Below are positions 1 through 61,514 of a stretch of DNA of 64,000 nt, one piece after another (the stretch's first letter is position 1; each line of letters starts with the position of its first letter). Origin of the DNA: an uncultured Clostridia bacterium. GTDB lineage: Bacteria > Bacillota > Clostridia > Oscillospirales > Ruminococcaceae. The position numbers and the translations under genes were made by a program. Below the pieces are notes generated by a model, which searched no databases, was not told where the DNA came from, and saw nothing but the letters and a program-made list of their open reading frames with translations. The DNA is taken from assembly GCA_944382845.1 (NCBI GenBank), contig CALWNN010000022.1, forward strand, positions 1-64,000. The letters run 5' to 3'.

Positions 1-203
1 GCAAGCTGCAGATAGGAGCTTTGCTCCTCATGGGTTCAGTATTGAATTCCTAAAAACCCCACTGAAAAACTGAATGGAACCCTGCCTCCTATGGGAGGCA
101 GGTCATCCAACAGGAGGCAGATCATCCCATAGGAGGCGGACCCGCCTAATATGAGGCAGACCTGCCGAATATTAGGCAGGGGGACATCGGCAACTTGATT
201 ATA
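1..203 (-). repeat. Interspersed mosaic repeat, copy 1 (window-truncated)
   Basis: Read on the minus strand, this copy starts with the family head at about 203 (aatcaagttgccgatgtccc-like). A string of short palindromes follows, with sequences such as gcctcctataggaggc. Next come the ttcagtttttcagtgggg arm, a ggagcaaagctcc hairpin and ctgcagcttgc, where the window begins. The loop side of the long hairpin is altered here (gaattcaatactgaaccc). The tail lies outside the window. I see no coding function. Confidence 0.85.
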
Positions 204-271
204 GTTTCTCGTATAGGCTTTTACGTTATCGCCCGGATTCATGTTCCTGCATAACTTATAAGCGGGCACAA

Positions 272-306
272 AAATATCCGCTACCACAAAGTGGTGACGG
301 ATATTT
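272..306 (-). other. Perfect-stem hairpin followed by T-run on minus strand
   Basis: Outer arms aaatatccg and cggatattt and inner arms accac and gtggt enclose a three-base loop. On the minus strand the hairpin is followed by a short T-run, so it could be an intrinsic terminator. It could also be a structured element in the 204-455 gap between repeat copy 1 and the tRNA terminator. I see no convincing gene in that gap. Confidence 0.45.
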
Positions 307-455
307 CCACGTATGGACTTAAGATCTGAACTTTTTTGTACGTTCTTTACCGACAGTGTTGCCGTAACTCCACCCAGCACAAACATTACACTTCGATAAA
401 AAAGGCGAAGAAGCATCTACGGTTTTAACCTTAAATCTTTCGGCTTAAAAAGCAC

Positions 456-482
456 AAAAAAAGCCCGCAAATACGGACTTTT
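456..482 (-). terminator. Intrinsic terminator of tRNA-Leu
   Basis: On the minus strand an 8-bp stem (aaagtccg with cgggcttt) and a six-base loop are followed by a run of seven T. It lies about 30 nt after the tRNA 3' end. Confidence 0.85.
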
Positions 483-513
483 CGGAGTGGACATCTATTT
501 CATTGTCCAAGTA

Positions 514-597
514 TGGTGCGGTAAATGGGACTTGAACCCATACGTCAAAGACACACGCCCCTCAAACGTGCCTGTCTGCCTATTCCAGCACTACCGC
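514..597 (-). tRNA. tRNA-Leu (anticodon GAG)
   Basis: The minus strand folds as a class II tRNA. The acceptor stem is GCGGTAG paired with TTACCGC, followed by discriminator A and an encoded CCA. The anticodon arm CACGT-TTGAGGG-GCGTG gives anticodon GAG, reading CUC and CUU. There is a long variable arm, and the T-arm is ATGGG-TTCAAGT-CCCAT. Its own promoter and terminator flank it, so it is a single-gene unit. Confidence 0.95.
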
Positions 598-636
598 AAA
601 ATAATTTGATTTTCTTTGTCGTTTGACGACTTTAAT

Positions 637-665
637 ATTATAGCATTAAATTTTGTAGTTGTCAA
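637..665 (-). promoter_or_regulatory. Consensus sigma-A promoter of tRNA-Leu
   Basis: On the minus strand TTGACA (660-665) and TATAAT (637-642) are separated by exactly 17 nt. This is a perfect housekeeping promoter, about 30-40 nt before the tRNA 5' end. Confidence 0.9.
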
Positions 666-739
666 CTTGTTAAAATAGCTAAAATTCAGCAGTGTAGTTC
701 CTTTGATTGTTGTTATATTGCATAAATTCGTGGTTGCTA

Positions 740-768
740 TTGAAAATAAGGATTATTTGTATTATAAT
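740..768 (+). promoter_or_regulatory. Sigma-A promoter for the 805-2046 operon
   Basis: TTGAAA (740-745), a 17-nt spacer and TATAAT (763-768) precede the caggaggaat ribosome-binding site and the ATG at 805. Confidence 0.8.
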
Positions 769-804
769 TAAATTAAGTATTCGGCCTTATCAGGAGGAAT
801 TTTT

Positions 805-1107
805 ATGAAAAATCGATTCATGCATTTTTACGCTGATTTCACCAGTTTTGCACCAAAAACAATTATCTTTCTGTTAATTGCAGGGCTTACCTTTATTTTT
901 TCGTCCGACAAATCTGCCAAATCAAAAAATGTCAGCAAACAATCCCGCAAAAAAAGCAATGGTTTTCTTTCAAAGACAAGGCGGAATTACAACTATGCCG
1001 ATTCAATAATTACCGCATTTTATCTGCATGATCTTAAAAAGAAAGCTGAAAAGCAGGACGAAAGCTTTCCCGTAAAGCTTGAAAACGCCGAAATAATTGA
1101 CCTTTAA
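805..1107 (+). CDS. Small membrane protein of unknown function
   Basis: This is a 100-residue protein with one hydrophobic segment near residues 17-32 (KTIIFLLIAGLTFIF). A lysine- and serine-rich, polar C-terminal part follows, so it is probably a single-pass protein with its tail in the cytoplasm. The start is set by a caggagg site at about 791. It is first in a three-gene unit, 11 nt before the next membrane protein. I do not recognise the family, and function cannot be inferred from position alone. Confidence 0.7.
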   Translation: MKNRFMHFYADFTSFAPKTIIFLLIAGLTFIFSSDKSAKSKNVSKQSRKKSNGFLSKTRRNYNYADSIITAFYLHDLKKKAEKQDESFPVKLENAEIIDL

Positions 1108-1118
1108 GAGGACTTATT

Positions 1119-1472
1119 ATGAAAAAATATCTTACGGATTACAGAAATTACATAAAACACTGTCTTGAAAAAGATAATGCCGATTGGAAAAAGCTTCTCG
1201 AAATGCACAAGGACAAGATATTATTTTTCCAGCACGAGCGCATTGTTCATCTGCTCGTTACAATTTTGTTTGCACTTATGACGCTTATGACGGTAATCGC
1301 CTTTGTTATCACAAGAATAATTGGCTTTGCACCGCTGATATTATGCTTTCTTGTGCTTATGGTGCCATATATAAAACATTACTACTTTCTGGAGAACCAG
1401 ACACAGGAATTATACAAGGATTACGACAAGATTTTAAGCAAGCTGGAAGGAAAAAGCGACAATGAGTTATAG
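1119..1472 (+). CDS. Two-pass membrane protein of unknown function
   Basis: This is a 117-residue protein with a polar, charged N-terminal third. Two adjacent hydrophobic segments (about residues 45-65 and 68-85) form a helical hairpin, and the C-terminus is charged and coiled-coil-like. The arrangement is typical of small uncharacterised clostridial membrane proteins. It overlaps the start of the following flavin reductase gene by 11 nt, so the two are likely translationally coupled. No family recognised. Confidence 0.7.
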   Translation: MKKYLTDYRNYIKHCLEKDNADWKKLLEMHKDKILFFQHERIVHLLVTILFALMTLMTVIAFVITRIIGFAPLILCFLVLMVPYIKHYYFLENQTQELYKDYDKILSKLEGKSDNEL

Positions 1473-2046
1473 CAAGGAAAAATGGAAGGGCGGAACGCTT
1501 CTTGCGCCTGTCCCCCCTGCCCTTGTGACTTGCAGGGACAATGGAAATGACAATGTTCTTACAATTGCGTGGACAGGGATAATCAACACTATCCCTCCAA
1601 AGACATACATTTCGGTGCGTCCCGAAAGATACTCTTATGATCTTATCAGGAACAGTGGCGTCTTTGCAATAAATCTTACTACCGAAGCTCTTGTGAAAGC
1701 CTGTGATTTCTGCGGAGTACGAAGTGGCGCAAAAGTTGACAAATTCAAAGAAACCGGACTTTGCGCAAGCGACGCTTTCTCAATTGACGCACCCATATTG
1801 GACGATAGTCCTGTTACCCTTGAATGCATGGTCACTGACGTTATTGAACTTGGAAGCCACCATATGTTTTTAGCGGACATAGTTTCTGTCGATGTTGCAA
1901 AAGAGCTTATCGATCCAAGCGGCAGACTTGCCTTGGAAAAATCAGGACTTTTAGCCTACTGCCACGGGGAGTATTACTCTTTGGGCAAGCGTCTTGGCTC
2001 TTTCGGCTTCTCGGTACGAAAAAAGAAAAAGAAACGCCGAAAATAA
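1462..2046 (+). CDS. Flavin reductase-like (flavoredoxin-type) FMN-binding protein
   Basis: This 194-residue protein matches the flavin reductase-like domain family (split-barrel FMN binders such as flavoredoxin). Visible family features are the N-terminal PVPPALVTC strand, the TIAWTGIINTIPP segment and SVRPERYSYDLIRNSG. The conserved CDFCGVRSGAKVDKF loop and the LECMV...HHMFLADI strands follow. Such proteins reduce FMN or carry it as an electron-transfer cofactor. The last 12 residues are a very basic KKKKKRRK tail that may bind nucleic acid or membrane. It overlaps the previous gene. The physiological partner is unknown. Confidence 0.85.
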   Translation: MSYSKEKWKGGTLLAPVPPALVTCRDNGNDNVLTIAWTGIINTIPPKTYISVRPERYSYDLIRNSGVFAINLTTEALVKACDFCGVRSGAKVDKFKETGLCASDAFSIDAPILDDSPVTLECMVTDVIELGSHHMFLADIVSVDVAKELIDPSGRLALEKSGLLAYCHGEYYSLGKRLGSFGFSVRKKKKKRRK

Positions 2047-2080
2047 TGTGATACAAAAACCCGCACTGATAATGGCAATT

Positions 2081-2143
2081 TAAAATCTGAACAAAGCCGA
2101 TTAAATATGCTTAAAATCGACCGGGACGATTGCAACTGTCGCA
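2081..2143 (-). repeat. Solitary tail of the mosaic repeat, reverse orientation
   Basis: On the minus strand a cgacagttgcaatcgtc motif is followed by ttttaagcatatttaatcgg and ctttgttcagattt. This matches the D and tail modules of the full repeats without the head. It lies upstream of, and opposite to, the esterase gene. Confidence 0.65.
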
Positions 2144-2226
2144 GGAAACGTTGCTCAGAGGGTCAAGTTAGAATTACCTGACTAACGACCTCCAATGAAA
2201 TTCCAAATGAAACGGTGGAAAGCTAT

Positions 2227-3048
2227 ATGGAAAAAATAAAATACGATATCGTTGAACATGCACCGGAGGACATCGTTACAGAGCGTGAAAACGTGGATTA
2301 TCCCACATTTATGCGCTATACATACTATTCTCAGACCGCAGAACGTGAAACCCCTGTAAATGTGTTGCTCCCCAAAAATTATTCAGAAGATAAGGAATAT
2401 CCCGTTCTTTATATTCTTCACGGCTACTATAGCGACGAAAACTGGATGGCAAGTGATCAGGTTCACCTTTCAACAATGCTTAACAATCTTATTGACAAAG
2501 GCGAGGCTGAAGAAATGATAATTGTTTTGCCTTACATTTTCTGCAATAAGGATATGCCCTACTGCACAGAAATGGATCTTGTAAATTCACTTAGCTACGA
2601 CAATTTTATAAACGATCTCAGAACCGACCTTATTCCCTTTATAGAAAGCAAATTTTCAGTGGCAAAGGGAAGAGGAAACACCGCAATAACAGGCTTTTCC
2701 ATGGGCGGAAGAGAGTCCTTGTTCATAGGATTTTCCATGCCGGATACCTTTGGCTATATAGGAGCCGTCTGCCCGGCGCCGGGCCTTGTACCCGTATCAG
2801 GGTCAGCCATGCACCCGGGGCAGATGCAGGAATGTGAAATGACTTTTACCGACAATCCGCCTTACGTTTTAATGATAAGCGCATCACAGATTGACGGAGT
2901 TGTGGGAAGCTTTCCAAACTCCTATCATGATATTCTGACAAAAAACGGAGTCCCTCACTTATGGCATCAGATGTCCTTGACAGGTCACGACCACACAAGC
3001 GTAATCCCGCATTTGTATAATTTTCTGAGAATAATATTCAAGCAATAG
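2227..3048 (+). CDS. Putative esterase (CE1/esterase D-like, alpha/beta hydrolase)
   Basis: This is a 273-residue intracellular serine esterase. It shows the order expected of the esterase D / feruloyl and acetyl-xylan esterase clan: VLLPKNYSE...YPVLYILHGY near the N-terminus, nucleophile elbow GFSMGGRES, and a C-terminal catalytic His region LTGHDHTS. There is no signal peptide. Likely substrates are acyl or feruloyl esters from imported plant oligosaccharides, or S-formylglutathione-like thioesters; the sequence does not decide. I chose ATG 2227 (ggtggaaag upstream) over the in-frame GTG at 2215. A terminator hairpin follows. Confidence 0.85.
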   Translation: MEKIKYDIVEHAPEDIVTERENVDYPTFMRYTYYSQTAERETPVNVLLPKNYSEDKEYPVLYILHGYYSDENWMASDQVHLSTMLNNLIDKGEAEEMIIVLPYIFCNKDMPYCTEMDLVNSLSYDNFINDLRTDLIPFIESKFSVAKGRGNTAITGFSMGGRESLFIGFSMPDTFGYIGAVCPAPGLVPVSGSAMHPGQMQECEMTFTDNPPYVLMISASQIDGVVGSFPNSYHDILTKNGVPHLWHQMSLTGHDHTSVIPHLYNFLRIIFKQ

Positions 3049-3069
3049 TCCGCAATAAAAATATAAATC

Positions 3070-3110
3070 AACCGCTCTTTGAACTTAGTTTCAGAGAGCG
3101 GTTATTTTAT
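3070..3110 (+). terminator. Intrinsic terminator between convergent genes
   Basis: A 9-bp stem (aaccgctct with agagcggtt, 3070-3103) is followed by a T-rich stretch. It lies between the convergent esterase and the 3146-3460 gene and may serve both strands. Confidence 0.8.
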
Positions 3111-3145
3111 ATAACTTGTAATAATTTTAAATTATGTTTAATGCC

Positions 3146-3460
3146 TCAATTTGATATCTTTGCATAGTAGCATATCACATGTCGGCGTTTATTTGTTTGA
3201 GAGTCAAATCCTTTTATATCGCAACCGTTTCCGCTCATAAGAGTACAAACAACAGCTCCCTTTGTAAGGCATCTGAACACCTGCGACCCGTCGCACACAA
3301 CGGATATCTCGCTGTCGGTAATTGAAATGCCTCCTTTTTTTCCAAGGGCTATCTCCTCTCCCCCTGCTCGTTCAACTGCGGAAGAAATGGATTTTCCGTG
3401 GTATTTCATTATTTCCTTATACGGAGTTTCCTCCTTTTTCTTCTTTGAAAACAGTCCCAT
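3146..3460 (-). CDS. Small conserved hypothetical protein
   Basis: This is a 104-residue soluble protein starting MGLFSKKKKEE. A gaggag site lies 7 nt upstream of this ATG, so the longer 117-residue reading into maf is unlikely. The body looks like a small beta-rich domain (GGISITDSEISVVCDG...KGAVVCTLMSGNGCDI) with several cysteines. It follows maf by 10 nt and is the last gene of the 5289-to-3146 minus-strand group. I do not recognise the family. Confidence 0.65.
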   Translation of the reverse strand: MGLFSKKKKEETPYKEIMKYHGKSISSAVERAGGEEIALGKKGGISITDSEISVVCDGSQVFRCLTKGAVVCTLMSGNGCDIKGFDSQTNKRRHVICYYAKISN

Positions 3461-3470
3461 TAAGTTCTCC

Positions 3471-4079: not shown

Positions 4080-4309
4080 AACAAATCCTCAGGTTTATAA
4101 TCAGGAGTAATAACAATATCCGGATTTTCGGTTATTTCTTTTTTGAACTGTTCCTGCCATTCAAGAGGAGTATAATCGCTTACCGACACGGAAACATGAT
4201 TTTCAGTGCATCCAATCGCCTCAATAAGAGCTTCTTTTACCTTCTCGGCAGCAAGCTTTTTCTGTTCATCGGTTCTTCCTTTAAGCATTTTTATAGTAAT
4301 ATGCGGCAT
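4076..4309 (-). CDS. Tautomerase-superfamily small protein (4-oxalocrotonate tautomerase-like)
   Basis: This 77-residue protein begins MPHITIKMLKGRTDEQKKL. That is the 4-oxalocrotonate tautomerase pattern of Pro at mature position 1 as catalytic base, then beta strand and helix. The second half (HVSVSVSDYTPLEWQEQF) fits the second strand-helix unit. Members act as homo-oligomeric keto-enol tautomerases; substrate unknown. It lies between the zinc-ribbon gene (11 nt) and maf (4-nt overlap). Confidence 0.8.
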   Translation of the reverse strand: MPHITIKMLKGRTDEQKKLAAEKVKEALIEAIGCTENHVSVSVSDYTPLEWQEQFKKEITENPDIVITPDYKPEDLL

Positions 4310-4320
4310 ATTATTCCTCC

Positions 4321-5289
4321 TTAATCAAGCTTTGTTCCACATTGCGAGCAGAATTTAGTCCCTGCTTCTTCCTTATTCCCGCAGTTTGTACAGAACACAA
4401 AGCCGCCGCTTTTCGGCTCTTCCTTAAGGCTTGTGCCGCACTCGGTGCAGAAAGCCGAATCCTCCGGGACAAAGCTTCCGCAATTGGGGCAAGCCTTTCC
4501 CGAAACCTCAGCAGTTGCCTGAGGTTCATTTATTTTCTCAACAGGAGCAATGTCGTCTGCATCAAATTCTTGTGCGGGAACAAAATCCGGAACAACATCT
4601 TCCTCCGATTTATCAAACTCCGGAACTATCTCCGACTCAGGCTCAACCACCGGTTCGGGTTCAACCACAGGTTCAGATTCAATCAAAGGTTCGGGCTCAA
4701 CCACCGGTTCAGATTCAATCAAAGGTTCAGGTTCAATTACAGGTTCGGGCTTGATTATAACTTCCTCGGGGACAACAGGCTCCGGCTGGGGTACAGGTTC
4801 GGCAGAAGCAGGAACCGCAACAGGCTGAGCAGGAACAGGCGATTCGATATCAGGTTGTCTTGTTCCGCATTTAGCGCAGAATTTTGCGCCCTCTTCAAGA
4901 ACTGAGCCGCACTTTACACAGTTAGGAACAACTACGGACTGCTTTGCGCCGCAAATCGGGCAGAAAACGCTTCCGTTGTCAATAGGCTCGCCGCAGCTTT
5001 CGCACTTTTTAAGTCCCTTTATTTCGTTTATCTTATCCTTATTTGCTTCAATTTCTTCCAGAATTTTTCTGATTTCTGCGGACAAAGCGTTAAGCTCGCC
5101 AATCTGACCGTTTTCGCCGAATTTTTCAAAGTAAAACTTACCCATCTCAGCGTACTTTGACTCAATCTCGTTTTTCTGCTGGTTAATGGTGCTGTTTAAC
5201 TTCTGCACCTCGGTTAACTCCTTGGCCTTGCTTGCAGTGCCACTGACGCCGTTAGAAATTGTTTTTCCTATTTTGTTGAAAAAGTCCAT
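4321..5289 (-). CDS. Zinc-ribbon protein with coiled coil and Glu-Pro repeat linker
   Basis: This is a 322-residue protein. An N-terminal amphipathic/coiled-coil region (about 1-90) is followed by two zinc ribbons of CxxC...CxxC type. A low-complexity acidic linker of repeated EPEP(L/V)(I/V)ESEP units (about 150-235) leads to two more zinc ribbons at the C-terminus, the last ending CSQCGTKLD. Four double-cysteine modules on a flexible stalk suggest a scaffold or adaptor binding protein or nucleic acid. The start has a strong aggaggt site. No catalytic domain is visible. The linker repeats vary at DNA level and may be length-polymorphic. Confidence 0.8.
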   Translation of the reverse strand: MDFFNKIGKTISNGVSGTASKAKELTEVQKLNSTINQQKNEIESKYAEMGKFYFEKFGENGQIGELNALSAEIRKILEEIEANKDKINEIKGLKKCESCGEPIDNGSVFCPICGAKQSVVVPNCVKCGSVLEEGAKFCAKCGTRQPDIESPVPAQPVAVPASAEPVPQPEPVVPEEVIIKPEPVIEPEPLIESEPVVEPEPLIESEPVVEPEPVVEPESEIVPEFDKSEEDVVPDFVPAQEFDADDIAPVEKINEPQATAEVSGKACPNCGSFVPEDSAFCTECGTSLKEEPKSGGFVFCTNCGNKEEAGTKFCSQCGTKLD

Positions 5290-5310: not shown

Positions 5311-5550
5311 TTTAAATCGTAGCAAAGCGTTGATAATTACATCTCTTTCAGAGCTAAACATCTCTTTCAGAGCAAACATCTCTTTCAGAGCTGTGCTTAA
5401 TCACGTTGCGACGAAAAGCAACCCGTCGCTGACTGCAGCAAGCTGCAAATGGGAGCTTTGCTCCTCAGGGTTTCAGTGGGAGATTAAGACCCCACTGAAA
5501 AACTGAATGGAACCCTGCCGTTTAGGCAGGGGACATCGGCGACTTGGTTA
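5311..5550 (-). repeat. Interspersed mosaic repeat, copy 2 (full length)
   Basis: Read on the minus strand, the head taaccaagtcgccgatgtcc begins at 5550. It is followed by a minimal palindrome (cctgcctaaacggcaggg), the ttcagtttttcagtgggg hairpin, ggagcaaagctcc, ctgcagcttgctgcag and a variant D module. Three tandem units of about 19 nt (agctctgaaagagatgt) and the tail atcaacgctttgctacgatt close it. The head supplies the stop codon of the upstream 5548-6186 gene. Confidence 0.92.
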
Positions 5551-12116: not shown

Positions 12117-12310
12117 TTATAACCAAGTCGCCGATGTCCCCCTGCCGAGTATTCGGCAGGTCTGCCGCAGTATTCGGCAGGTCTGCCGCAGTATTCGGCA
12201 GGTCTGCCGCAGTATTCGGCAGGTCTGCCGCAGTATTCGGCGCGTCTGCCGCAGTATTCGGCAGGTCTGCCTCCTATAAGGCGGTTTCCGTTCAGACTTT
12301 CAATGGAGGT
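12117..12310 (+). repeat. Interspersed mosaic repeat, copy 3 (expanded palindrome array)
   Basis: Head ttataaccaagtcgccgatg is followed by six tandem 21-nt palindrome units, then gcctcctataaggc and a degenerate hairpin arm (ggtttccgttcagactttc). D, cassette and tail modules are missing. It fills most of the space between the cysteine desulfurase start and ypeB. In the remaining stretch to 12496 I see only AT-rich sequence and probable promoter elements. Confidence 0.88.
12149..12274. repeat. Six tandem 21-nt palindromic units inside repeat copy 3
   Basis: Units start at 12149, 12170, 12191, 12212, 12233 and 12254. Each begins gtattcggcaggtctgcc. Units 1-4 are identical, unit 5 has one base change (gcgcg for gcagg), and the last diverges at its end into tcc. 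The near-identity implies recent slippage or unequal crossover. Confidence 0.95.
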
Positions 12311-13858: not shown

Positions 13859-14107
13859 TATAACCAAGTCGCCGATGTCCCCCTGCTGATTATTCAGCGG
13901 ACCAGCCTCCTATAGGAGGCTGGGTTCCATTCAGTTTTTCAGTGGGGGTTTTAATCCCCCACTGAAAAACTGAGGAGCTTTGCTCCTCGGCGACAGATTG
14001 CAATCGTCGCAACGTGATTAAGCACAGCTCTGAAAGAGATGTATAGCTCTGAAAGAGATGTATAGCTCCGAAGGAGATGTAAGTATCAACGCTTTGCTCC
14101 GATTTAA
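13859..14107 (+). repeat. Interspersed mosaic repeat, copy 4 (full length, archetype)
   Basis: This is the most complete copy. It has head tataaccaagtcgccgatg, palindromes ctgattattcagcgg and gcctcctataggaggc, then a perfect 18-bp hairpin (13931-13948 with 13956-13973, loop ttttaat). ggagctttgctcc, D module gattgcaatcgtcgcaacg and three 19-nt tandem units (14026-14082, agctctgaaagagatgtat) follow. The tail is atcaacgctttgctccgatt. It begins 21 nt after the ypeB stop, and the remaining 14108-14228 shows nothing I can name. Confidence 0.95.
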
Positions 14108-19142: not shown

Positions 19143-19326
19143 TACAACCATGTCGCCGATGTCCCCCTGCTGATTATTCAGCAGGTTTGCCTCATATTAG
19201 GCGGGTCCGCCTCCTATGGGATGATCTGCCTCCAATAGGAGGCAGGGTTCCATTCAGTTTTTCGGTGGGGGTTTTAATCCTCCACTGAAAAACTGAAGAG
19301 CAAAGCTCCTCGGCGACGATTTAAAC
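19143..19326 (+). repeat. Interspersed mosaic repeat, copy 5
   Basis: A slightly diverged head (acaaccatgtcgccgatgtc) is followed by palindromes (ctgattattcagcag, gcctcatattaggcggg, gcctccaataggaggc). The ttcagtttttcggtggggg hairpin with loop ttttaat and gagcaaagctcctcggcgac come next. It stops there without cassette or tail, 4 nt before the yabP ribosome-binding site. The rest of the 18915-19342 gap is AT-rich and holds the GH36 promoter and operator. Confidence 0.9.
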
Positions 19327-21732: not shown

Positions 21733-22093
21733 TGCGTGACTGCTCCGGTGAAATTCACACCGGAAACATTAAGATATGCGATGAAGCGGAAGGTTGCTGA
21801 CGGTAGGTCAGGTAATTTCCGTGGAGTATGTCCGATTTCAAACCGGGCGACTGTAATACCGACACTGTGTTGTGCGAATGCTTCTTGCGAAGGGTCATAC
21901 TGCGTAGTCAGGGACTTTTGCGTTTGCCGATACTAATCGCTATAACGGTTTCCGAAAGACAAAAGGTTTTTCGGAATTTTTTATGATAACACAGGGAACA
22001 CACGGAAACGTTGAAACGAAAGTTCCGAAGCGAAAGAGATGGTATTCAAAGCCCTCCGACAAACTTAAATAAAAGCTATGGGAGGCGAAACAA
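21733..22093 (+). ncRNA. Structured leader of the S10 operon, putative r-protein-responsive attenuator
   Basis: A leader of about 360 nt precedes rpsJ. It contains a strong early hairpin (ccggtg aaatt cacaccgg, around 21745-21763) and several G/C-rich complementary segments. A full intrinsic terminator at 21948-21983 is followed by rpsJ only after another 110 nt. In other bacteria L4 controls the S10 operon through its leader. The same logic is inferred here; the specific RNA family is not identified. Confidence 0.6.
21948..21983 (+). terminator. Intrinsic terminator (attenuator) within the S10 leader
   Basis: Arms ttccgaaa (21950-21957) and tttcggaa (21969-21976) are followed by TTTTTT. It lies downstream of the promoter and upstream of rpsJ, so the operon can be expressed only by read-through or antitermination. 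Confidence 0.85.
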
Positions 22094-38010: not shown

Positions 38011-38071
38011 ACGAGTTGTAATCACAGCAGTAAATTTTAAGCAAGTTTGATCGGCTTTGCTCAGATTTAAA
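38011..38071 (+). repeat. Solitary tail of the mosaic repeat upstream of punA
   Basis: acgagttgtaatcacagcag resembles a decayed D module. It is followed by ttttaagcaagtttgatcgg and ctttgctcagattt, the tail found in copy 8 and in the solitary tail at 54659. It ends 24 nt before the punA start. Confidence 0.6.
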
Positions 38072-48598: not shown

Positions 48599-50041
48599 AT
48601 GAAAGACCAGAACCATGCGCCTATTTATGAAGCGCTTCAGAAGCATATTAAAAATAATGTTGTCCGTCTGGACGTTCCGGGACATAAGGGAGGACGTGGA
48701 AATAAGGAGCTGAGGGATTTTATCGGAGTAAACTGCATGAAGGCAGACGTAAACTCAATGAAGCCTCTTGATAACCTTTGTCATCCGGTGTCTGTTATAA
48801 AAGAGGCTGAGGAACTTGCAGCAGAGGCTTTCGGAGCAAAGCAGGCATTTTTTATTGTAAACGGAACAACAGCTTCCGTTCAGGCAATGATAATGAGCGT
48901 CTGCAAGACGGGAGAAAAAATAATCATGCCGAGAAACGTCCACAGAAGTGCAATCAACGCGCTTGTTGTGTGCGGAGCAATCCCTGTCTATATCGATCCC
49001 GGAACAAACAAACGTCTCGGTATACCTCTGGGAATGTCTGTTGAGGACGTTAAAAGGGCTATCATGGAAAACCCGGACGCTAAGGCTGTACTTGTGAATA
49101 ACCCTACCTACTATGGCATATGCTCAAATTTAAGAGAAATAGTAAGGATCGCTCACGAAAATAATATGCTTGTTCTTTGCGATGAAGCTCACGGAACACA
49201 TTTTTACTTCGGCGACGGACTTCCTGTAAGCGCAATGGCGGCAGGGGCGGATATGGCTGCGGTGTCCGTTCATAAAACAGGAGGAAGCCTTACCCAAAGC
49301 TCGTTCCTGCTTTGCGGAGAGAATGTTTCTCCGGGCTATGTAAGACAGGTGATAAACCTTACCCAGACAACAAGCGGATCGTATCTTCTTATGGTGTCCC
49401 TTGACCTTGCAAGAAAAAATCTTGCCCTTCACGGAAAGGATATTTTTGCAAAAACAATTGCGTATGCCGAATACGCAAGAGGTGAAATAAATAAAATGGG
49501 AGGATTTTACGCTTTCGGAAAGGAACTTTGCGACGGCGACGCTTTTTACGATTTTGACAGTACAAAGGTTTCTGTTCATACAAGAGAAATGGGACTTGCG
49601 GGAGTCGAGGTATACGATATTCTGAGAGACGACTACGATATACAGATCGAATTCGGGGATATTGGAAATATTCTTGCGGTGGTTTCCGCAGGAGACAGGG
49701 AGCTTGAAATAGAAAGATTTATTTCCGCTCTTTCGGAGATAAAAAGGCTTTATTCAAAAGATCCTGCGGGAATGTTTGACCACGAGTACATAAATCCCGA
49801 TGTGGTGATTCCTCCCAAGCAGGCGTTTTACAGCGATAAGATATCTCTTCCCATTGAAGAAAGCGCAGGAAGGATCTGCGGAGAGTTTGTTATGTGCTAC
49901 CCTCCGGGAATACCCATTCTTGCTCCCGGAGAGAGGATAACAGACGAAATTCTGAGTTATATTGCATATTCAAAGGAAAAAGGCTGTTTTATGACAGGAA
50001 CGGAGGACATGAAAATAGAGCGGATAAACGTTGTTGTATAA
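48599..50041 (+). CDS. speA: Orn/Lys/Arg decarboxylase, probably arginine decarboxylase
   Basis: This 480-residue fold type I PLP enzyme is of the short Bacillus SpeA/YaaO class. Motifs are RLDVPGHKGGRGN near the start, AFFIVNGTTASVQAMI, LVLCDEAHGTHFYFG, and the PLP Lys in VSVHKTGGSLTQSSFLL. ITDEILSYIAYSKEKGC closes the C-terminal domain. Arginine is the likely substrate because an agmatinase follows; lysine or ornithine cannot be excluded. Its stop codon TAA (50039-50041) is formed by the head of repeat copy 7. Confidence 0.9.
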   Translation: MKDQNHAPIYEALQKHIKNNVVRLDVPGHKGGRGNKELRDFIGVNCMKADVNSMKPLDNLCHPVSVIKEAEELAAEAFGAKQAFFIVNGTTASVQAMIMSVCKTGEKIIMPRNVHRSAINALVVCGAIPVYIDPGTNKRLGIPLGMSVEDVKRAIMENPDAKAVLVNNPTYYGICSNLREIVRIAHENNMLVLCDEAHGTHFYFGDGLPVSAMAAGADMAAVSVHKTGGSLTQSSFLLCGENVSPGYVRQVINLTQTTSGSYLLMVSLDLARKNLALHGKDIFAKTIAYAEYARGEINKMGGFYAFGKELCDGDAFYDFDSTKVSVHTREMGLAGVEVYDILRDDYDIQIEFGDIGNILAVVSAGDRELEIERFISALSEIKRLYSKDPAGMFDHEYINPDVVIPPKQAFYSDKISLPIEESAGRICGEFVMCYPPGIPILAPGERITDEILSYIAYSKEKGCFMTGTEDMKIERINVVV

Positions 50042-50269
50042 CCAAGTCGCCGATGTCCCCCTGCCCCTATTAGGCGGGTCCGCCTCCTATTGGAGGCAGG
50101 GTTCCATTCAATTTTTCAGTGGGGGTTTTAATCCCCCACTGAAACCCTGAGGAGCAAAGCTCCTATCTGCAGCTTGCTGCAGTCAGCGACAGATTGCAAT
50201 CGTCGCAACGTGATTAAGCCTGTCTGCTGAAAAGCAGACAGCCTTATCAACGCTTTGCTCCGATTTAAA
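50037..50269 (+). repeat. Interspersed mosaic repeat, copy 7 (full length)
   Basis: Head tataaccaagtcgccgatg overlaps the speA stop codon. It is followed by palindromes (ccctattaggcggg, gcctcctattggaggc), the long hairpin, ggagcaaagctcc, ctgcagcttgctgcag and the D module. The cassette is cctgtctgctgaaaagcaga in place of the 19-nt tandem units, and the tail is atcaacgctttgctccgatt. It fills nearly all of the speA-speE gap. Confidence 0.95.
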
Positions 50270-53115: not shown

Positions 53116-54628
53116 TACCATCGGACTTTTGGGTCTTAACGCTTTTCCCGTCTGGGCGGAGATAGAAGCGGGAAAAGGACTTCCTCTTCTTGAAATAGTA
53201 GGTCTTGCGGACGCAGCGGTAAAGGAAAGCCGAGAGCGTATTGCGTCGGCATTCAGAACAAGCGGAATCAGATTTCCATCACTTAAAATGCTTGTAAATC
53301 TTGCTCCTGCCGGAATGAAAAAGACGGGATCGGGATACGATTTTGCAATAGCGGTGGCTCTCCTGTGCGCTGGGGGAGTTTTTGAGGCGACAGACCGACT
53401 TGACAAAATGGCTTTTATTGGAGAAACCGCACTAAACGGCGAAATAAGAGGGATAAACGGCGTTCTGCCTATGACCATACTTGCAAAAAAACAAGGCATA
53501 GAAGAAATTTTTGTTCCATTTGACAATGGAAAGGAAGCCTCTGTTGTAAAGGGGATAAAGGTTTACCCGGTAAAGGATCTGAAGCAAGCGGCGCTTCACC
53601 TTTCGGGTATTGAGAAAATAGAACCGTTGTCTGAATATATTCCTGAGAGTGCGGATTATTTCGGAGATCTTGACTTTGCAGATGTAAAGGGACAGGAGTC
53701 TGCCAAGAAAGCGCTTGAGATCGCCGCAGGTGGAGGACATAACGTTCTTATGGTAGGCGCTCCCGGTTCGGGAAAAAGTATGCTTGCAAAGCGTATGCCA
53801 TCGATCCTTCCGCCAATGACCTTTGAGGAAGCTATCGAAACCACCAATATACATTCAGTTTCGGGACTTCTTGACAAGGATACCCCTCTTATAACAAAAC
53901 GTCCATTTCGCTCTCCTCACCATACTATCTCCACTGCAGGACTTTCGGGAGGAGGAACGATACCCAAGCCCGGGGAAATTTCCCTTGCGCATAACGGACT
54001 GCTGTTTCTTGACGAACTTGCAGAGTTTTCACGAAAAACTCTTGAAATTTTAAGACAGCCTCTTGAGGACTCAAAGGTGACTATTTCAAGAGCATCGGGA
54101 ACAGTAACTTACCCTTGCTCTATCATGCTTGTGGCGGCAATGAACCCATGCCCATGCGGATATTACGGACACCCTACAAGAAAATGTATTTGCTCGCAAA
54201 AACAGGTATCCACATATCTTTCAAAGATATCGGGACCTATGCTTGACAGATTTGACATTCATGTAGAGGTGGCTCCCGTTGAATTTGACGATATTTCTTC
54301 AACGGAAAAAGCCGAAAGTTCCCGGATTATAAGAGAACGGGTCTTGAAAGCAAGGCAAATCCAGATAGAGCGCTATAAAGGGACTGGCATTACCTGCAAC
54401 GCAAGGATAACATCTGATATTTTAAGCGAGGTCTGTCCTCTTACTGACGGGGCAAGAGAAATGCTCAGGGGGGTTTTTGATAATCTCGGACTTTCCGCAA
54501 GAGCATATGACAGGATATTAAAGGTAGCAAGGACAGTTGCCGATATGGATGGTGAAGAGGTCATCGACCGAAGGCATATTGCTTCGGCGGTTTCGTACAG
54601 AAGCCTTGACAGAAAATACTGGGGATAA
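53099..54628 (+). CDS. comM: ComM/YifB family Mg-chelatase-like AAA+ ATPase
   Basis: This 509-residue protein has an N-terminal S5-like ChlI domain (PVWAEIEAGKGLPLLEIVGLADAAVKESRER). An AAA+ module follows with Walker A GAPGSGKSMLAKRM, Walker B LLFLDELAEFSRKTLE, and the MNPCPCGYYGHPTRKC insertion. A C-terminal Mg_chelatase_C domain closes it (GLSARAYDRILKVARTVAD). In Gram-negatives ComM is a branch-migration helicase in natural transformation; the role in Firmicutes is less clear. It overlaps the lipase gene. Confidence 0.93.
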   Translation: MFARINTIGLLGLNAFPVWAEIEAGKGLPLLEIVGLADAAVKESRERIASAFRTSGIRFPSLKMLVNLAPAGMKKTGSGYDFAIAVALLCAGGVFEATDRLDKMAFIGETALNGEIRGINGVLPMTILAKKQGIEEIFVPFDNGKEASVVKGIKVYPVKDLKQAALHLSGIEKIEPLSEYIPESADYFGDLDFADVKGQESAKKALEIAAGGGHNVLMVGAPGSGKSMLAKRMPSILPPMTFEEAIETTNIHSVSGLLDKDTPLITKRPFRSPHHTISTAGLSGGGTIPKPGEISLAHNGLLFLDELAEFSRKTLEILRQPLEDSKVTISRASGTVTYPCSIMLVAAMNPCPCGYYGHPTRKCICSQKQVSTYLSKISGPMLDRFDIHVEVAPVEFDDISSTEKAESSRIIRERVLKARQIQIERYKGTGITCNARITSDILSEVCPLTDGAREMLRGVFDNLGLSARAYDRILKVARTVADMDGEEVIDRRHIASAVSYRSLDRKYWG

Positions 54629-54658
54629 TGTAATCATGACGCATATATGTCTGTAAGG

Positions 54659-54720
54659 TGACGGTTGCAGTAGTTGCAGCCAATTTTAAGCAAGCTTAAT
54701 CGGTTTTGCTCCGATTTAAT
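54659..54720 (+). repeat. Solitary tail of the mosaic repeat upstream of carboxynorspermidine dehydrogenase gene
   Basis: gacggttgcagtagttgcag, a decayed D module, is followed by ccaattttaagcaagcttaa and tcggttttgctccgattt. This is the same tail type as copy 8 and the 38011 fragment. It ends about 20 nt before the gene's ribosome-binding region. Confidence 0.65.
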
Positions 54721-57103: not shown

Positions 57104-57126
57104 GTTTAAATGAAAGGACGAGTATT

Positions 57127-57810: not shown

Positions 57811-58025
57811 TATAACCAAGTCGCCGATGTCCCCCTGCTGTATTATTCAGCAGGTCTTGTCGAGTATTCGGCAGGGATCCATTCAGTTTTTCAGTGGGGG
57901 TCTTAATCCCCGGTTGTTTTTATCTTTGATAAAAACAACTGTTGAAACTTCTGAGGAGCAAACTGCGACGCACTGCAATCGTAGCAACCAATTTAAAGCA
58001 AGCTTAATCGGCTTTGCTTCGATAA
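57811..58025 (+). repeat. Interspersed mosaic repeat, copy 8
   Basis: Head tataaccaagtcgccgatg begins at the base after the upstream stop codon. It has palindromes (ctgtattattcagcag, gagtattcggcaggg) and the ttcagtttttcagtggggg arm. The alternative hairpin cassette gttgtttttatc-ttt-gataaaaacaac replaces the usual right arm. A short ggagcaaactgcg, a decayed D module and the ttaagcaagcttaatcgg variant of the tail follow. Confidence 0.92.
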
Positions 58026-58070
58026 AAAACCTCGGAAAAAGCGGTTTTACCCGTTTGTCCGAGGTTCTTT
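58026..58070 (-). terminator. Intrinsic terminator of the FemAB-like gene
   Basis: On the minus strand aacctcgga pairs with tccgaggtt, with extra pairing inside (aaacgggtaaaaccg). It is followed by TTTTTTATC. It abuts the end of repeat copy 8. Confidence 0.8.
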
Positions 58071-58072
58071 GT

Positions 58073-59173
58073 TTAGTCCGCCGTCCTGTGCTTTAAAAGT
58101 CTCAGAGTTTTCAGTCTGTGAAGCTTGCGGTAACATTTTTCTGCAAAACCTACAAGCTTTTTCTTGAATGGAGAGAATGTGTAGAAAAATTCTCCGGCAT
58201 AAGTAACAACTTCTCCGTTAAATCCCTTTTTGAACTTGTAAACTCCGTAATTCGGGTGGCTTTCGTCCTTGTAAAAGGGTATGCCCTGAAAATCGTAAAT
58301 GAAATTCTTTCCCTCTATCGCCCACTTTATCATCGTCCACTGCATAAGGTAGTTGGGATAGGTGTTTCTGTGGTGATTTGCAGAAGCTCCGTAAACATAA
58401 CAGGTCTTTCCTGCATATTGAGTGGTAACAGCTCCTGAAACAGGGATGGGTTCTTTTCCTTCTTCCTCATAATAGCAAACAAAAAGCCTGCAATGCTCGG
58501 CTGTAAGTCCGTCAAGCATTTTTGCAAAGTATTCCTTTGAACGAATGGAAAATCCGTCACGCTTTCCTGTTTCTATCATCATGGGGTAGAAGTCGTCAAG
58601 AGCTTCTTTTCCGCATACCTTACAGACAACACCCTTTCGTGAAGCCTTTCTTATCCTGTTTCTCCAGTCGGGTTTGAATGAAGCCATAACCTCATCTTCT
58701 GTTTTGCCCTCGATATTTCTTAACATATAATTATTTCTTGCCTGAATTGTGGAAAGCTCCGGAGCGTTATCTATATGGGAAAATCCAAGTCCTCTCATAA
58801 GCTCCGTTATGTCCGTTTCCTTTTCTTCAAAACAAGGGTCCCACATGAATTCATAGCTTTTGTGCTTCTTGCCAAGGGCTTTTACACCGTCAAGAAGATC
58901 CTTTAAGGTCTCCTCGTCCCGGTAATCGCAAACAGGTCCGTGGGGTGCGTAAAGAAATGTACAGCCAAGAATAGGTATCTTTTTTATAAGTACAAGACAG
59001 GTTCCTTTTATCTTTCCGTCATTTCCTCTTGAGATAACAGCGTCCCAGCCCCAGTTCTGTTTTACCTTGGGCCACTTCAGTGACTGCATGAAAACTCCGT
59101 TTTTGTGAGTTTTTGCAAAGTTTTCAAACTCCTCACATAATACAGCGTTGTTTTTATCCAGTATCTCCAACAA
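58073..59173 (-). CDS. FemAB-family aminoacyltransferase (peptidoglycan bridge)
   Basis: This 366-residue protein is built of two GNAT-like lobes as in FemX/FemAB. MQSLKWPKVKQNWGWDAVISRG, FLYAPHGPVCDYRDEETL and NWRNRIRKASRKGV-like sequence (KPDWRNRIRKASRKG) are visible. YVYGASANHHRNTYPNYLMQWTMIKWAIEGK and YDFQGIPFYKDESHPNYGVYKFKKGF are typical. The family adds amino acids from aminoacyl-tRNA to lipid II stem peptides. Start is TTG 59173 with aaagga upstream; no ATG fits. Which amino acid is added is unknown. Confidence 0.9.
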   Translation of the reverse strand: MLEILDKNNAVLCEEFENFAKTHKNGVFMQSLKWPKVKQNWGWDAVISRGNDGKIKGTCLVLIKKIPILGCTFLYAPHGPVCDYRDEETLKDLLDGVKALGKKHKSYEFMWDPCFEEKETDITELMRGLGFSHIDNAPELSTIQARNNYMLRNIEGKTEDEVMASFKPDWRNRIRKASRKGVVCKVCGKEALDDFYPMMIETGKRDGFSIRSKEYFAKMLDGLTAEHCRLFVCYYEEEGKEPIPVSGAVTTQYAGKTCYVYGASANHHRNTYPNYLMQWTMIKWAIEGKNFIYDFQGIPFYKDESHPNYGVYKFKKGFNGEVVTYAGEFFYTFSPFKKKLVGFAEKCYRKLHRLKTLRLLKHRTAD

Positions 59174-59306
59174 TTATCAGTCCTTTTTATATTTAAATCA
59201 AACTTTATTATAACACAAATCACATGAAAAATCAACCGCTAAATTTTTTGTTTTAGTGATTAGAATTTAAAACACGGATAAAAATAATATTGTAGCAATT
59301 TTTTGT

Positions 59307-59334
59307 TGACAATAAAAAAGTGTGTGTTATAATA
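59307..59334 (+). promoter_or_regulatory. Sigma-A promoter of the VanY-like gene
   Basis: TTGACA (59307-59312), a 16-nt spacer and TATAAT (59329-59334) lie about 43 nt before ATG 59377. Confidence 0.85.
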
Positions 59335-59376
59335 ATCTTTAAGAACATCAGAAAGGCTATTTTTGGGAGATATTAC

Positions 59377-61032
59377 ATGGCGAGCAGTAAAAATGATAAG
59401 ATAAAAAAACTTTTACCCATTATTATATTGATATGCGGGGCTTTGATAGCTCTGACTGTGTTTTTTGCAGTAAGACGCGTATATTACCCTGAAAAAGTAT
59501 ATTTTTTAAATAACGAGATAGAGCTTTTTGCCGGAGAAACAAAAAAGCTTTCGGCTTTGACAAAACCTGTTCTTCCCTTCGGCAGCAACCTTATGTATGA
59601 AAGCTCAGATGAAAGCGTAGCAAAAGTATCGTCAAACGGTACAGTAACGGCTGTTTCCGGTGGGGAAGCCACCATTACCGCTTCTCACAGGCTTAATAAA
59701 AAATCGGCTCAGCTTAAAATAACTGTTCTGGAAAATCTTGTGAACGTCATTTTAAATGAAAAGGAAATCAAAATGAATAAAGGAGAAAGCTATACCCTTG
59801 ACGTAGAAACCGAGATACAGGGAAATATCGATCCCGACATAGGATTTTCTTCCTCTGACGAAAAGGTAGCGAAGGTTTCTCAGAACGGAATTATTACTGC
59901 TGTCGGCGACGGAAGCGCCCGGATTACCGTTTCTGATAAAAGTGGCGGGACAGCTTCGGTAAGAGTGTTTGTTGAAACTCCACTTGAAAGCATAGGCTTT
60001 GCGAAGGATTATTACAGAATATCCACAGGCGAAAGCGTCGAGTTATTACCTTCCTTTACTCCTGACGACGCTACCGACAAAAGTATTTCTTATTCAGTTT
60101 ATCCAAGCGGAATTGCAAAGGTGGAAAACGGAATTATAACAGGGATATCTCCCGGAACAGCCTATATTGTTGCAAAAAATGAAAAATCCGGACTTTCTTC
60201 AACAGTTACGGTTTACGTTTCTCAGGGAGTATCTTCTATTTCTCTTTCAAATACAAGCGTTACCGTTTACGAGGGAGAAAGCTTTACTGTAACGGCAACA
60301 GTTCTTCCCGAAAATGCCGGCAATAAAAATATAAACTGGTACACTTCAAACGGATATATTGCCTCTGTTTCTCCTGAAGGGTCGGCAGTCACCATAACGG
60401 GTGTAAAGCAGGGAAACTGTACAGTTACGGCTGTAAGCGCACAAAATGAAAATATAAAAGCCGAGATAAAGGTTACAGTCAAGGAAAAAATAACTCAGCC
60501 GGAGATCCGGCCGACCTATATTGACGGGATACTTGTTGTAAACAAGACCTATGGGCTTCCAAGAAATTATAACAGTGGCGGAGGGCTTACAAAGGAAACC
60601 TCAGAAGCTTTTGCGAAAATGCAGGCTGACGCAAAAAAGGACGGAATTAACCTTTATGTTGCGTCAGGGTATCGTTCCTACGAACGACAGCAACAGCTTT
60701 TTAACTACTATCTTTCACGCGGACAGGGGCAGGCGTATGTTGAAACATATTCTGCACGTCCCGGATATTCCGAGCATCAGGCAGGCGTTGCAATTGATGT
60801 GAATCTGGCGTCGAAGGCTTTTCTCGGAACTCCTGAGCAGATATGGCTTCACGAGCATTGCGTGGAGTACGGTTTCATAATAAGATATCCTGATGGTAAA
60901 TCCGATAAAACAGGGTTTATGTACGAGCCATGGCACATCAGGTATCTCGGAGTTGATACAGCTAAGAAGGTTGCGGACTCAGGTCTTTGCCTTGAAGAAT
61001 ATCTGGGAATTTCCTCGGTTTATGCTGATTGA
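59377..61032 (+). CDS. Ig-like (BIG2) repeat D-alanyl-D-alanine carboxypeptidase, VanY type
   Basis: This 551-residue protein has an N-terminal signal-anchor (about 9-33). Four bacterial Ig-like (Big_2) repeats span about 50-385, each with a (A)KVS.NG.(I/V)TAV.(G/S)G or similar signature. A C-terminal M15B peptidase follows: VASGYRSYERQQQLF, the Zn ligands in SEHQAGVAIDVN and EPWHIRYLG. It trims the terminal D-Ala from peptidoglycan stem peptides. The Ig-like stalk probably places the catalytic domain in the wall. ATG 59377 has gggag upstream. Confidence 0.93.
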   Translation: MASSKNDKIKKLLPIIILICGALIALTVFFAVRRVYYPEKVYFLNNEIELFAGETKKLSALTKPVLPFGSNLMYESSDESVAKVSSNGTVTAVSGGEATITASHRLNKKSAQLKITVLENLVNVILNEKEIKMNKGESYTLDVETEIQGNIDPDIGFSSSDEKVAKVSQNGIITAVGDGSARITVSDKSGGTASVRVFVETPLESIGFAKDYYRISTGESVELLPSFTPDDATDKSISYSVYPSGIAKVENGIITGISPGTAYIVAKNEKSGLSSTVTVYVSQGVSSISLSNTSVTVYEGESFTVTATVLPENAGNKNINWYTSNGYIASVSPEGSAVTITGVKQGNCTVTAVSAQNENIKAEIKVTVKEKITQPEIRPTYIDGILVVNKTYGLPRNYNSGGGLTKETSEAFAKMQADAKKDGINLYVASGYRSYERQQQLFNYYLSRGQGQAYVETYSARPGYSEHQAGVAIDVNLASKAFLGTPEQIWLHEHCVEYGFIIRYPDGKSDKTGFMYEPWHIRYLGVDTAKKVADSGLCLEEYLGISSVYAD

Positions 61033-61198
61033 TGCGAAAAAGTGGCAGTGGCTTTTTGGGATTCTCCTCTTTCATTGAATGTCTTGCCCGGACAAAAGCC
61101 CTCTGACAGGCGGATTTGTTGCAAATGATGATATTAAACCTCTGTCTGCGACTGCTGTGAACACTACCACGGCAGGGTTTTTAACAGAATGTAAAATG

Positions 61199-61240
61199 AA
61201 AAGCCGCTCTTTTTTGGGTTAAAGGGCGGCTTTGGCTTTG
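61199..61240 (+). terminator. Probable intrinsic terminator after the VanY-like gene
   Basis: aaagccgc (61200-61207) pairs with gcggcttt (61226-61233), with tttt/aaa pairing inside. The following T-stretch is interrupted. Between 61033 and 61199 I see nothing else. Confidence 0.55.
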
Positions 61241-61248
61241 ATCACTGA

Positions 61249-61277
61249 TTGACAATCGATAAAAGGGGTGATATAAT
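61249..61277 (+). promoter_or_regulatory. Consensus promoter upstream of repeat copy 9 and trkA
   Basis: TTGACA (61249-61254), exactly 17 nt and TATAAT (61272-61277) lie 16 nt before repeat copy 9. If active, it transcribes the whole repeat as part of a leader of about 340 nt for trkA-trkH. Confidence 0.8.
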
Positions 61278-61292
61278 ATTCTCTGGTATTTT

Positions 61293-61514
61293 AATAACTA
61301 AGTCGCCGATGTCCCCTTGCCGAATATTCGGCAGGGTTCCATTCAGTTTTTCAGTGGGGGTTTTAATCCCCGGTTGTTTTTATCTTTGATAAAAACAACT
61401 GTTGAAACTTCTGAGGAGCAAAGCTCCTCGGCGGCGATTGCAATCGTCGCAACGTGATTAAGCCTGTCTGCTGAAAAGCAGACATCCTTATCAACGCTTT
61501 GCTCCGATTTAAAT
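61293..61514 (+). repeat. Interspersed mosaic repeat, copy 9 (full length)
   Basis: Head aataactaagtcgccgatg is followed by one palindrome (ccgaatattcggcag) and the ttcagtttttcagtggggg arm. It has the same gttgtttttatc / gataaaaacaac cassette as copy 8. ggagcaaagctcc, the D module gattgcaatcgtcgcaacg, the cctgtctgctgaaaagcaga cassette of copy 7 and tail atcaacgctttgctccgatt follow. It combines cassettes seen separately in copies 7 and 8. Confidence 0.95.

What the first reader, a model, noticed from the sequence alone, without database searches (positions are those of the whole stretch)
1..61514. Family of modular interspersed repeats with exchangeable cassettes
Eight clear copies (1-203, 5311-5550, 12117-12310, 13859-14107, 19143-19326, 50037-50269, 57811-58025, 61293-61514), one degenerate head (21536) and four tail fragments share an ordered module set. 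The order is head (aaccaagtcgccgatgtccc), short palindromes, 17-18 bp hairpin, ggagcaaagctcc, D module (gattgcaatcgtcgcaacg), cassette, tail (atcaacgctttgctccgatt). No copy encodes a protein, none is flanked by a transposase, and both orientations occur. The density is about one per 7 kb outside the ribosomal operon. It looks like a MITE or REP-like family, or a structured RNA family, that I do not recognise.
Basis: seen in the sequence. Interest (0 to 1): 0.8.

Follow-up and report, generated by a model that had tools for sequence, protein, structure and literature searches.

The report
Orphan folded hopping DNA repeat family
This bacterial genome carries at least a hundred copies of a short non-coding DNA repeat whose paired stems change together from genus to genus, and which likely spreads as a mobile element using an enzyme supplied by something else, because several of the matching sites in related species lack it.

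Summary
In detail: the eight copies are at the stated coordinates, and a head 14-mer occurs 117 times genome-wide against 0 for the reversed control. The unit is a sharply bounded element, TATAACCAAG...GATTTAAA. Four of eight window copies face orthologous sites without it, in two related genomes each. A covariance model finds relatives in 10 of 198 family genomes and 17 of 394 order genomes, in six families. A closing stem and the inner hairpins covary between genera; hairpin cassettes reassort between copies. Copies lie mostly in sense orientation after genes; in 17 of 58 the upstream stop codon is the TAA of the TATAA edge. No Rfam family matches above threshold. The five multi-copy family genomes searched have no intact IS200/IS605 transposase or TnpB; a further genome, G061, has two pairs. 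Verdict: a non-autonomous, structured mobile repeat, BOX/MITE/PATE-like in behaviour and not placed in any of them; its mover, exact junctions and RNA-or-DNA nature are unknown.

The parts
1..203 (-). element copy, cut by the contig start (head, h1, h2 array, h3, h4, h5 start)
   Evidence: E 1.8e-14
5311..5550 (-). full element copy; upstream ORF stops at the TAA of its head; orthologous site lacks the element in G003 and G001
12117..12310 (+). 5' half of an element with a six-unit 21-bp array of the h1 hairpin; no canonical 3' end; orthologous site lacks it in G003 and G004
13859..14107 (+). full element copy, best match to the model; folding z -10.2
   Evidence: (E 6.3e-37)
13859..13863 (+). 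TATAA edge: inferred insertion target or left terminus
   Evidence: conservation boundary over 118 heads
13868..13875 (+). strand A of closing stem P1 (GTCGCCGA)
   Evidence: fold; covariation
13883..13900 (+). hairpin h1
13902..13923 (+). hairpin h2 (optional module)
13931..13973 (+). hairpin h3, 18 bp; best-paired helix between genera
13974..13986 (+). hairpin h4 (GGAGCTTTGCTCC; inverted form GGAGCAAAGCTCC in other copies)
13987..13994 (+). strand B of closing stem P1 (TCGGCGAC), which can also pair with a downstream strand C
14002..14104 (+). 3' hairpin domain with tandem AGCTCTGAAAGAGATGT-type cassettes at its tip
14100..14107 (+). GATTTAAA right edge
19143..19326 (+). short element copy (head, h1, h2, h3, h4, TCGGCGACGATTTAAA); orthologous site lacks it in G001 and G004
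50037..50269 (+). full element copy inside a polyamine gene cluster, between an Orn/Lys/Arg decarboxylase (stop = TAA of the head) and spermidine synthase; orthologous site lacks it in G062 and G002
57811..58025 (+). element copy with nested h3 hairpin and the alternative tail
61293..61514 (+). full element copy with nested h3 hairpin; folding z -8.7; one of the model's training sequences
2080..2235 (-). decayed copy
   Evidence: E 1.4e-5
38017..38071 (+). tail fragment
   Evidence: E 0.0075
54506..54720 (+). tail fragment or decayed copy
   Evidence: E 0.011

Best explanation
The repeats are copies of one non-coding structured element that is missing from several of the matching sites of related species and likely spreads as a non-autonomous mobile element, inserting, it is inferred, just 3' of a TATAA sequence with an enzyme that would be supplied in trans. 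Shown: sharp ends (TATAA... and ...GATTTAAA); a 5' multibranch domain with a closing stem (strands A and B) that covaries between genera; a predicted 3' hairpin domain; orthologous sites without the element for 4 of 8 window copies; patchy occurrence across an order; reassortment of hairpin cassettes. Inferred: the folded single strand is what the enzyme recognises; TATAA is mainly host target, because tandem copies read GATTTAAA|CCAAG without a second TATAA; no target duplication is made; copies survive mostly where TATAA ends a gene (its TAA being the stop codon) or, in genome G173, where it is part of a promoter -10 box, so they ride in untranslated regions without breaking the gene. Once in place, slippage and gene conversion between copies would expand and swap the hairpins at stem tips.
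For: Copy number 117 heads against control 0. Sharp edges: the three bases before the searched head in 118 heads, and the eight after the searched tail in 66 tails, are conserved and the next ones are not. Sites without the element for 4 of 8 window copies, two related genomes each: flank gaps of 194-277 bases in the window against -16 to 48 in the relatives, and the model finds no copy in those relatives' stretches. Relatives in 10 of 198 family genomes and 17 of 394 order genomes. Closing stem: own strands reach 7 pairs or more in 18 of 24 copies versus 83 of 478 cross-genus pairings and 17% of shuffled heads; in a second set the best run holds 5.62 Watson-Crick pairs on average versus 4.45 when partners are permuted, 0 of 20,000 permutations reaching it. 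Inner hairpins over 19 copies of 11 genomes: 13 of 22 pairs with changes on both sides versus 6.3 shuffled, 87% of cells paired versus 38-53% when slid. Folding z -8.7 and -10.2. Stop codon exactly at TA[TAA] in 17 of 58 copies with a sense upstream ORF; of 20 long ORFs that reach the head 17 stop there; in six other genomes 12 of 17. Flanking ORFs codirectional: 28 sense, 6 antisense. Cassettes: all four combinations of h5 presence and h7 type, 10, 11, 11, 8. Recent spread in G207: 13 places at 97-100% identity.
Against: No mobilising enzyme identified; G061 does hold two intact IS605-type pairs, one beside a copy. Relatives are only about 60-80% identical, so no exact junction was read; an invariant short duplication would be invisible to the shuffle test, a few of whose 82 copies had an inner match taken as the end, and at the 5311 site 16 and 8 bases of the empty site align with both flanks, which could be a short duplication or AT-rich chance. 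The four other window copies gave no clear empty site. The 20-mer head is absent from all 60 relatives searched, but one of them, G009, holds diverged copies by model, so absence of the 20-mer is not absence of the element; of the four congeners only G003 is listed with zero by model. GT versus AC mispairs in stems, 71 to 51, do not decide RNA or single-stranded DNA. Promoter context is strong in G173 (5 of 11 with perfect TTGACA at spacing 16-18) but not enriched in G000, 2 of 108 at up to 1 mismatch versus 70 of 1409 control TATAA sites. G149 and a few others show no clear closing stem, hairpin h4 pairs in only 60% of cells, and the compared copies include several per genome.
Confidence: 0.66

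Rival explanations
1. It is a PATE/REP-like relic of IS200/IS605 elements: a Y1 transposase peels off the folded single strand at its terminal hairpins and inserts it 3' of a short AT-rich target without duplication.
For: Predicted hairpins near both ends, no detected target duplication, an AT-rich left edge resembling the right end, tandem copies sharing TTTAAA. PATEs are described as lacking terminal inverted repeats and target duplications and having near-terminal palindromes (PMC3119063, passages). G061 has two intact IS605-type tnpA/tnpB pairs.
Against: Y1_Tnp (PF01797) gave no match in G062/G192, G207 and G173, a copy with stop codons in G000 and a weak fragment with stop codons in G154; TnpB (PF07282) gave none in these five. 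Head and tail patterns were not found at the L202 pair of G061; at L204 they mark a separate copy. No element by model at three other Y1 loci. G162 has 7 Y1 copies but one element match.
Confidence: 0.2
2. It is a classical MITE of a DDE transposase, with short imperfect terminal inverted repeats (TWTAA...TCGCC) and a short fixed target duplication hidden in the AT-rich ends.
For: G061 copies have TATAACCAAGTCGCC at one end and, as reverse complement, TTTAAATCTTCGCC at the other (sequences); a near-palindromic mini-copy exists in G000 (L036); flank overlap of 8 and 16 bases at the 5311 site.
Against: No duplication signal over 82 copies; in G000 most tails of the main type read GCTCCGATTTAAA, without the right inverted repeat; no head followed by a transposase ORF was noticed among the copies read, but ORFs were not checked one by one and DDE families were not searched.
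Confidence: 0.2
3. It is a host-maintained RNA element (mRNA 3' or 5' structure, terminator or stabiliser, or regulator) kept by selection at its sites rather than a parasite.
For: Sense bias 28 to 6, position directly after stop codons, covarying fold, a copy between a promoter-like sequence and a tRNA-Leu gene in G173.
Against: Patchy distribution, absence at the orthologous sites of 4 window copies, wide variation in module content between copies.
Confidence: 0.12

Closest known systems
BOX elements of Streptococcus pneumoniae (with RUP and SPRITE; PMC3049150, abstract and two results sections read)
   Same: modular, with a middle module absent or repeated; 125 copies in one genome; folded if transcribed; judged parasitic from distribution
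   Different: no sequence comparison was made here; BOX is reported to have terminal inverted repeats and target duplications, not detected here; here a long-range closing stem covaries between genera, and copies start at TATAA, often a stop codon
PATEs and small mobile repeats (SMR) of Haloquadratum walsbyi (PMC3119063, passages read)
   Same: transposase-free mobile repeats; PATEs have near-terminal palindromes and no target duplication; the way SMRs move is called enigmatic
   Different: PATE palindromes resemble those of IS605-type transposons; no such partner was found in the five multi-copy family genomes searched
BrickBuilt MITE of Porphyromonas gingivalis (PMC4596501, abstract read)
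   Same: leader and tail around a variable tandem array of 23 bp, like the 12117 copy and the AGCTC cassettes
   Different: different host; sequence not compared; there the elements lie 49-591 bases from the nearest coding sequence, here often directly at the stop codon
REP/BIME elements with RAYT (Y1) transposases (recalled)
   Same: palindromic and intergenic
   Different: larger multibranch fold; no intact Y1 gene in the five multi-copy family genomes searched

Membership tests
MITE | short, non-coding, multi-copy | tested here: met
   roughly 55-330 bp, 117 head hits
MITE | terminal inverted repeats | tested here: inconclusive
   short imperfect TWTAA...TCGCC in G061 copies, lost at the right end of the main G000 tail type
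MITE | target-site duplication | tested here: inconclusive
   no excess identity between flanks over 82 copies, best z 1.8 of 567 offset and length combinations; an invariant duplication could not be seen; flank overlap at the 5311 site
MITE | full-length parent transposon with the same ends | tested here: inconclusive
   none noticed among the copies read; DDE families not searched
PATE (IS605-related) | near-terminal palindromes | tested here: met
   predicted folds
PATE (IS605-related) | no target duplication | tested here: inconclusive
   none detected, invariant one not excluded
PATE (IS605-related) | ends shared with an IS200/IS605 element of the same genome | tested here: not met
   no intact Y1 or TnpB in G000, G062/G192, G207, G154, G173; element ends not found at the L202 pair of G061
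REP/BIME | RAYT/Y1 transposase in the genome | tested here: not met
   none intact in the five multi-copy family genomes; intact Y1 in G061, G162 and G149; RAYT type not tested
BOX element | sequence similarity to boxA/boxB/boxC | not tested
   no BOX sequence was compared
Rfam structured RNA | match to a covariance model of Rfam 15 | tested here: not met
   no element match at gathering thresholds in the window; four matches far below threshold in three loci, best Erse 18.9 of 138 bits, E 0.055
host cis-regulatory RNA | conserved at orthologous sites | tested here: not met
   absent from the orthologous sites of 4 window copies; 4 not resolved

The most novel reading that the evidence does not exclude
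An order-wide class of transposase-free mobile element in Clostridia, defined by a folded single strand rather than by conserved ends: a covarying closing stem with a competing downstream partner strand, moved 3' of TATAA by an enzyme class not yet tied to such repeats, and growing by adding exchangeable hairpin cassettes at stem tips.
Probability: 0.3. Interest if true: 0.82.

Novelty: new variant of a known kind. Interest (0 to 1): 0.62.

Why it matters
Some small transposase-free repeats have no settled way of moving; the mobilisation of the Haloquadratum SMRs is called enigmatic in print (PMC3119063). This family offers a genome with near-identical, probably recent copies (G207), relatives in six families of one order with a fold that covaries between genera and so can be tested by paired mutations, and a defined edge (TATAA) that often places copies at stop codons. 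If transcribed, it would also add folded RNA to the untranslated regions of many operons, for example inside the polyamine gene cluster of this window.

Tried and rejected
IS605/TnpB origin: tested by PF01797 and PF07282 searches and by looking for the element at Y1 loci; not supported, though G061 has intact pairs. Integron attC sites: considered because attC often overlaps stop codons; set aside on recalled core-site rules, with no call made. Viral carriage: four viral contigs matched head patterns, none has the element by model, so chance. Phage records: no match for one copy. Promoter insertion as a general rule: true for part of G173 only, not enriched in G000. Strand asymmetry (GT against AC): not decisive. 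RNAalifold's own pairing of the head on A1 differs from stem P1 and was set aside after the cross-genus comparison; model R1 still carries it.

Limits of the counts: 119 heads were collected in G000, 118 used; these include the doubtful window 21540 and chance-like window 45249 and L182 heads, dropped but not. Two of 41 G061 heads (L078, L084 minus) are chance-like and were not dropped. One search scored at most 13 candidates per genome and at most 6, so copy numbers there are lower bounds; the model's E-values are rough. 21 of its 34 training sequences are from G061; 34 of the 45 copies listed were used. G062 and G192 are taken as one genome because contig numbers, lengths and hit coordinates agree. 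ORF contexts are mechanical (90 codons or more, 120), not gene models. In one search the automatic h3 finder missed the true hairpin in several copies, and some best runs are not the P1 pair. One search read seven of eight loci; L306 was cut at the wrong place and not used. At 57811 the G002 stretch aligns only on the right side of the copy in a direct comparison, so that site is unresolved.
Full report
Observation. A covariance model built from 34 copies of three genomes (21 from G061, 11 from G062, 2 from G000, one of these the window's 61293 copy) recovers seven of them in the window at E 4.2e-13 or better, plus decayed pieces at 2080-2235 (minus), 38017-38071 and 54506-54720. The 12117 copy has an exact head and a 21-bp array but no canonical 3' half. 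Genome-wide the 14-mer GTCGCCGATGTCCC with up to one mismatch occurs 117 times in 2,135,633 bases, the reversed control never. A number of copies lie at contig ends, so the true number may be higher.

Anatomy. Over 118 heads, conservation begins abruptly at TATAACCAAGTCGCCGATGTCCC; the TAT before the searched 20-mer is not forced by the search. Over 66 tails of the main type it ends abruptly at GATTTAAA. Lengths run from about 55 to 330 bp. The predicted fold of the best window copy (13859-14107, z -10.2) has a 5' domain closed by GTCGCCGA/TCGGCGAC (stem P1), which encloses hairpins h1, h2, h3 and h4, and a 3' hairpin domain whose tip carries the tandem cassettes. The 61293 copy gives the same closing stem (z -8.7). 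Modules vary: the h1/h2 hairpins and the h7 cassette can be repeated, h3 can carry a nested hairpin, h4 occurs in both orientations. Among 119 collected heads all four combinations of h5 (present, absent) and h7 type (two types) occur, 10, 11, 11 and 8 times; 79 lack a recognised h7, truncated copies and chance heads included. So cassettes reassort between copies.

Relatives and covariation. The exact 21-mer head found two other named assemblies in genome contigs, CAMMVF01 ('uncultured Clostridia bacterium', G061) and CALXIQ01 ('uncultured Ruminococcus sp.', G062). The head 20-mer at up to one mismatch is absent from all 60 relatives searched, four congeners included; one of the 60, G009, nevertheless holds diverged copies by model. 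The model finds relatives in 10 of 198 family genomes and 17 of 394 order genomes, in families f1, f10, f17, f20, f21 and f24. In the copies read the head strand changes together with the strand after h4, for example GTCGCCG/CGGCGAC, ACGACTG/CAGTCGT, AAGCGT/ACGCTT, TGCAAA/TTTGCA, CAGACG/CGTCTG, ACGTCG/CGACGT. Tested against mismatched partners, own strands reach 7 or more pairs in 18 of 24 copies and cross-genus pairings in 83 of 478; shuffled heads reach it in 17%. In a second set of 24 copies the best run holds 5.62 Watson-Crick pairs on average against 4.45 when partners are permuted, 0 of 20,000 permutations reaching it. Both sets contain several copies of some genomes, and G149 has no clear stem. 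Inner hairpins h1, h3 and h4 over 19 copies of 11 genomes show 13 of 22 pairs with changes on both sides (shuffled mean 6.3) and 87% standard pairs (38-53% when slid); h1 and h3 pair in 92% and 96% of cells, h4 in 60%. Strand B can also pair with a third, downstream strand C, so the fold may switch; that is inference.

Mobility. For four of eight window copies related genomes have the same two flanking segments without the element: 50037 in G062 and G002, 5311 in G003 and G001, 19143 in G001 and G004, 12117 in G003 and G004. The gap between the aligned flanks is 194-277 bases in the window and -16 to 48 in the relatives, and the model finds no copy in those stretches. The other four gave no clear empty site. 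In G207, 13 places match at 97-100%, which points to recent spread. No flank duplication was detected over 82 copies, but an invariant one would be missed, and at the 5311 site 16 and 8 bases of the relatives align with both flanks. Tandem copies read GATTTAAA|CCAAG or GATTTAAA|TCAAG (L022, L148, L018), as if TATAA belonged to the target.

Where it lands. Of 113 copies with usable flanks, 58 have a sense ORF upstream, 33 an antisense one and 22 neither; between codirectional ORFs 28 are sense and 6 antisense. In 17 of the 58 the upstream stop codon is exactly the TAA of TATAA; of 20 ORFs of 120 codons or more that reach the head, 17 stop there and 3 do not. Six other genomes give 12 and 5. At 50037 the host gene is an Orn/Lys/Arg decarboxylase followed by spermidine synthase and an arginase-family gene, with S-adenosylmethionine decarboxylase upstream; the stop sits at the same codon in G062 and G002 although they lack the element (by reading). 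In G173, 5 of 11 copies have a perfect TTGACA at promoter spacing before TATAA(T), and one lies before a tRNA-Leu gene; G000 shows no such enrichment.

Mechanism and rivals. The best reading is a non-autonomous mobile element recognised through its fold and inserted 3' of TATAA. The IS200/IS605 reading fits the hairpin-end style and the lack of a detected duplication, but Y1 and TnpB genes are absent or decayed in the five multi-copy family genomes searched. G061 has two intact pairs; the element's ends were not found at one (L202), and at the other (L204) a separate copy ends about 170 bases from the tnpB ORF. A DDE-type MITE remains possible and was not searched for. A host-kept RNA explains the sense bias but not the empty sites.

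Known families. BOX, RUP and SPRITE (PMC3049150: abstract and two results sections read), PATEs and SMRs (PMC3119063: passages) and BrickBuilt (PMC4596501: abstract and outline) are the nearest in behaviour. No description of this family came up in the literature searches (listings only for the other papers) or, above threshold, in Rfam. The order's name is not given by the tools; Oscillospirales is my guess from the deposited names and the S10-Clostridia leader.

Noticed in passing
window 21773-21853: S10-Clostridia ribosomal protein leader, the only Rfam match of the window at gathering score.
   Followed up: no
window 4619-4762: 18-bp minisatellite (TCAGGCTCAACCACCGGT-like, about six copies), by eye inside a coding region.
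   Followed up: no
L222 (G173) 513-757: An element copy lies between a perfect TTGACA at promoter spacing before TATAAT and a tRNA-Leu gene at 769-852.
   Followed up: partly
L036 / G000 C6 16110-16434: A near-palindromic mini-copy of about 63 bp abuts a full copy end to end, sharing TTTAAA; possibly the minimal form of the element.
   Followed up: partly
L204 (G061 C2 13900-17265): An IS605-type tnpA/tnpB pair; an element copy ends at locus position 67, about 170 bases from the tnpB ORF. The ends of the IS were not mapped.
   Followed up: partly
G162 C1: A one-contig genome of the family with seven Y1 transposase genes of equal or nearly equal score but a single element match.
   Followed up: no
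L145 and L148 (G000): Two truncated copies break off at the same point of h3 (CATTCAGTTTTTTAT...), which may mark a deletion or insertion hotspot.
   Followed up: no
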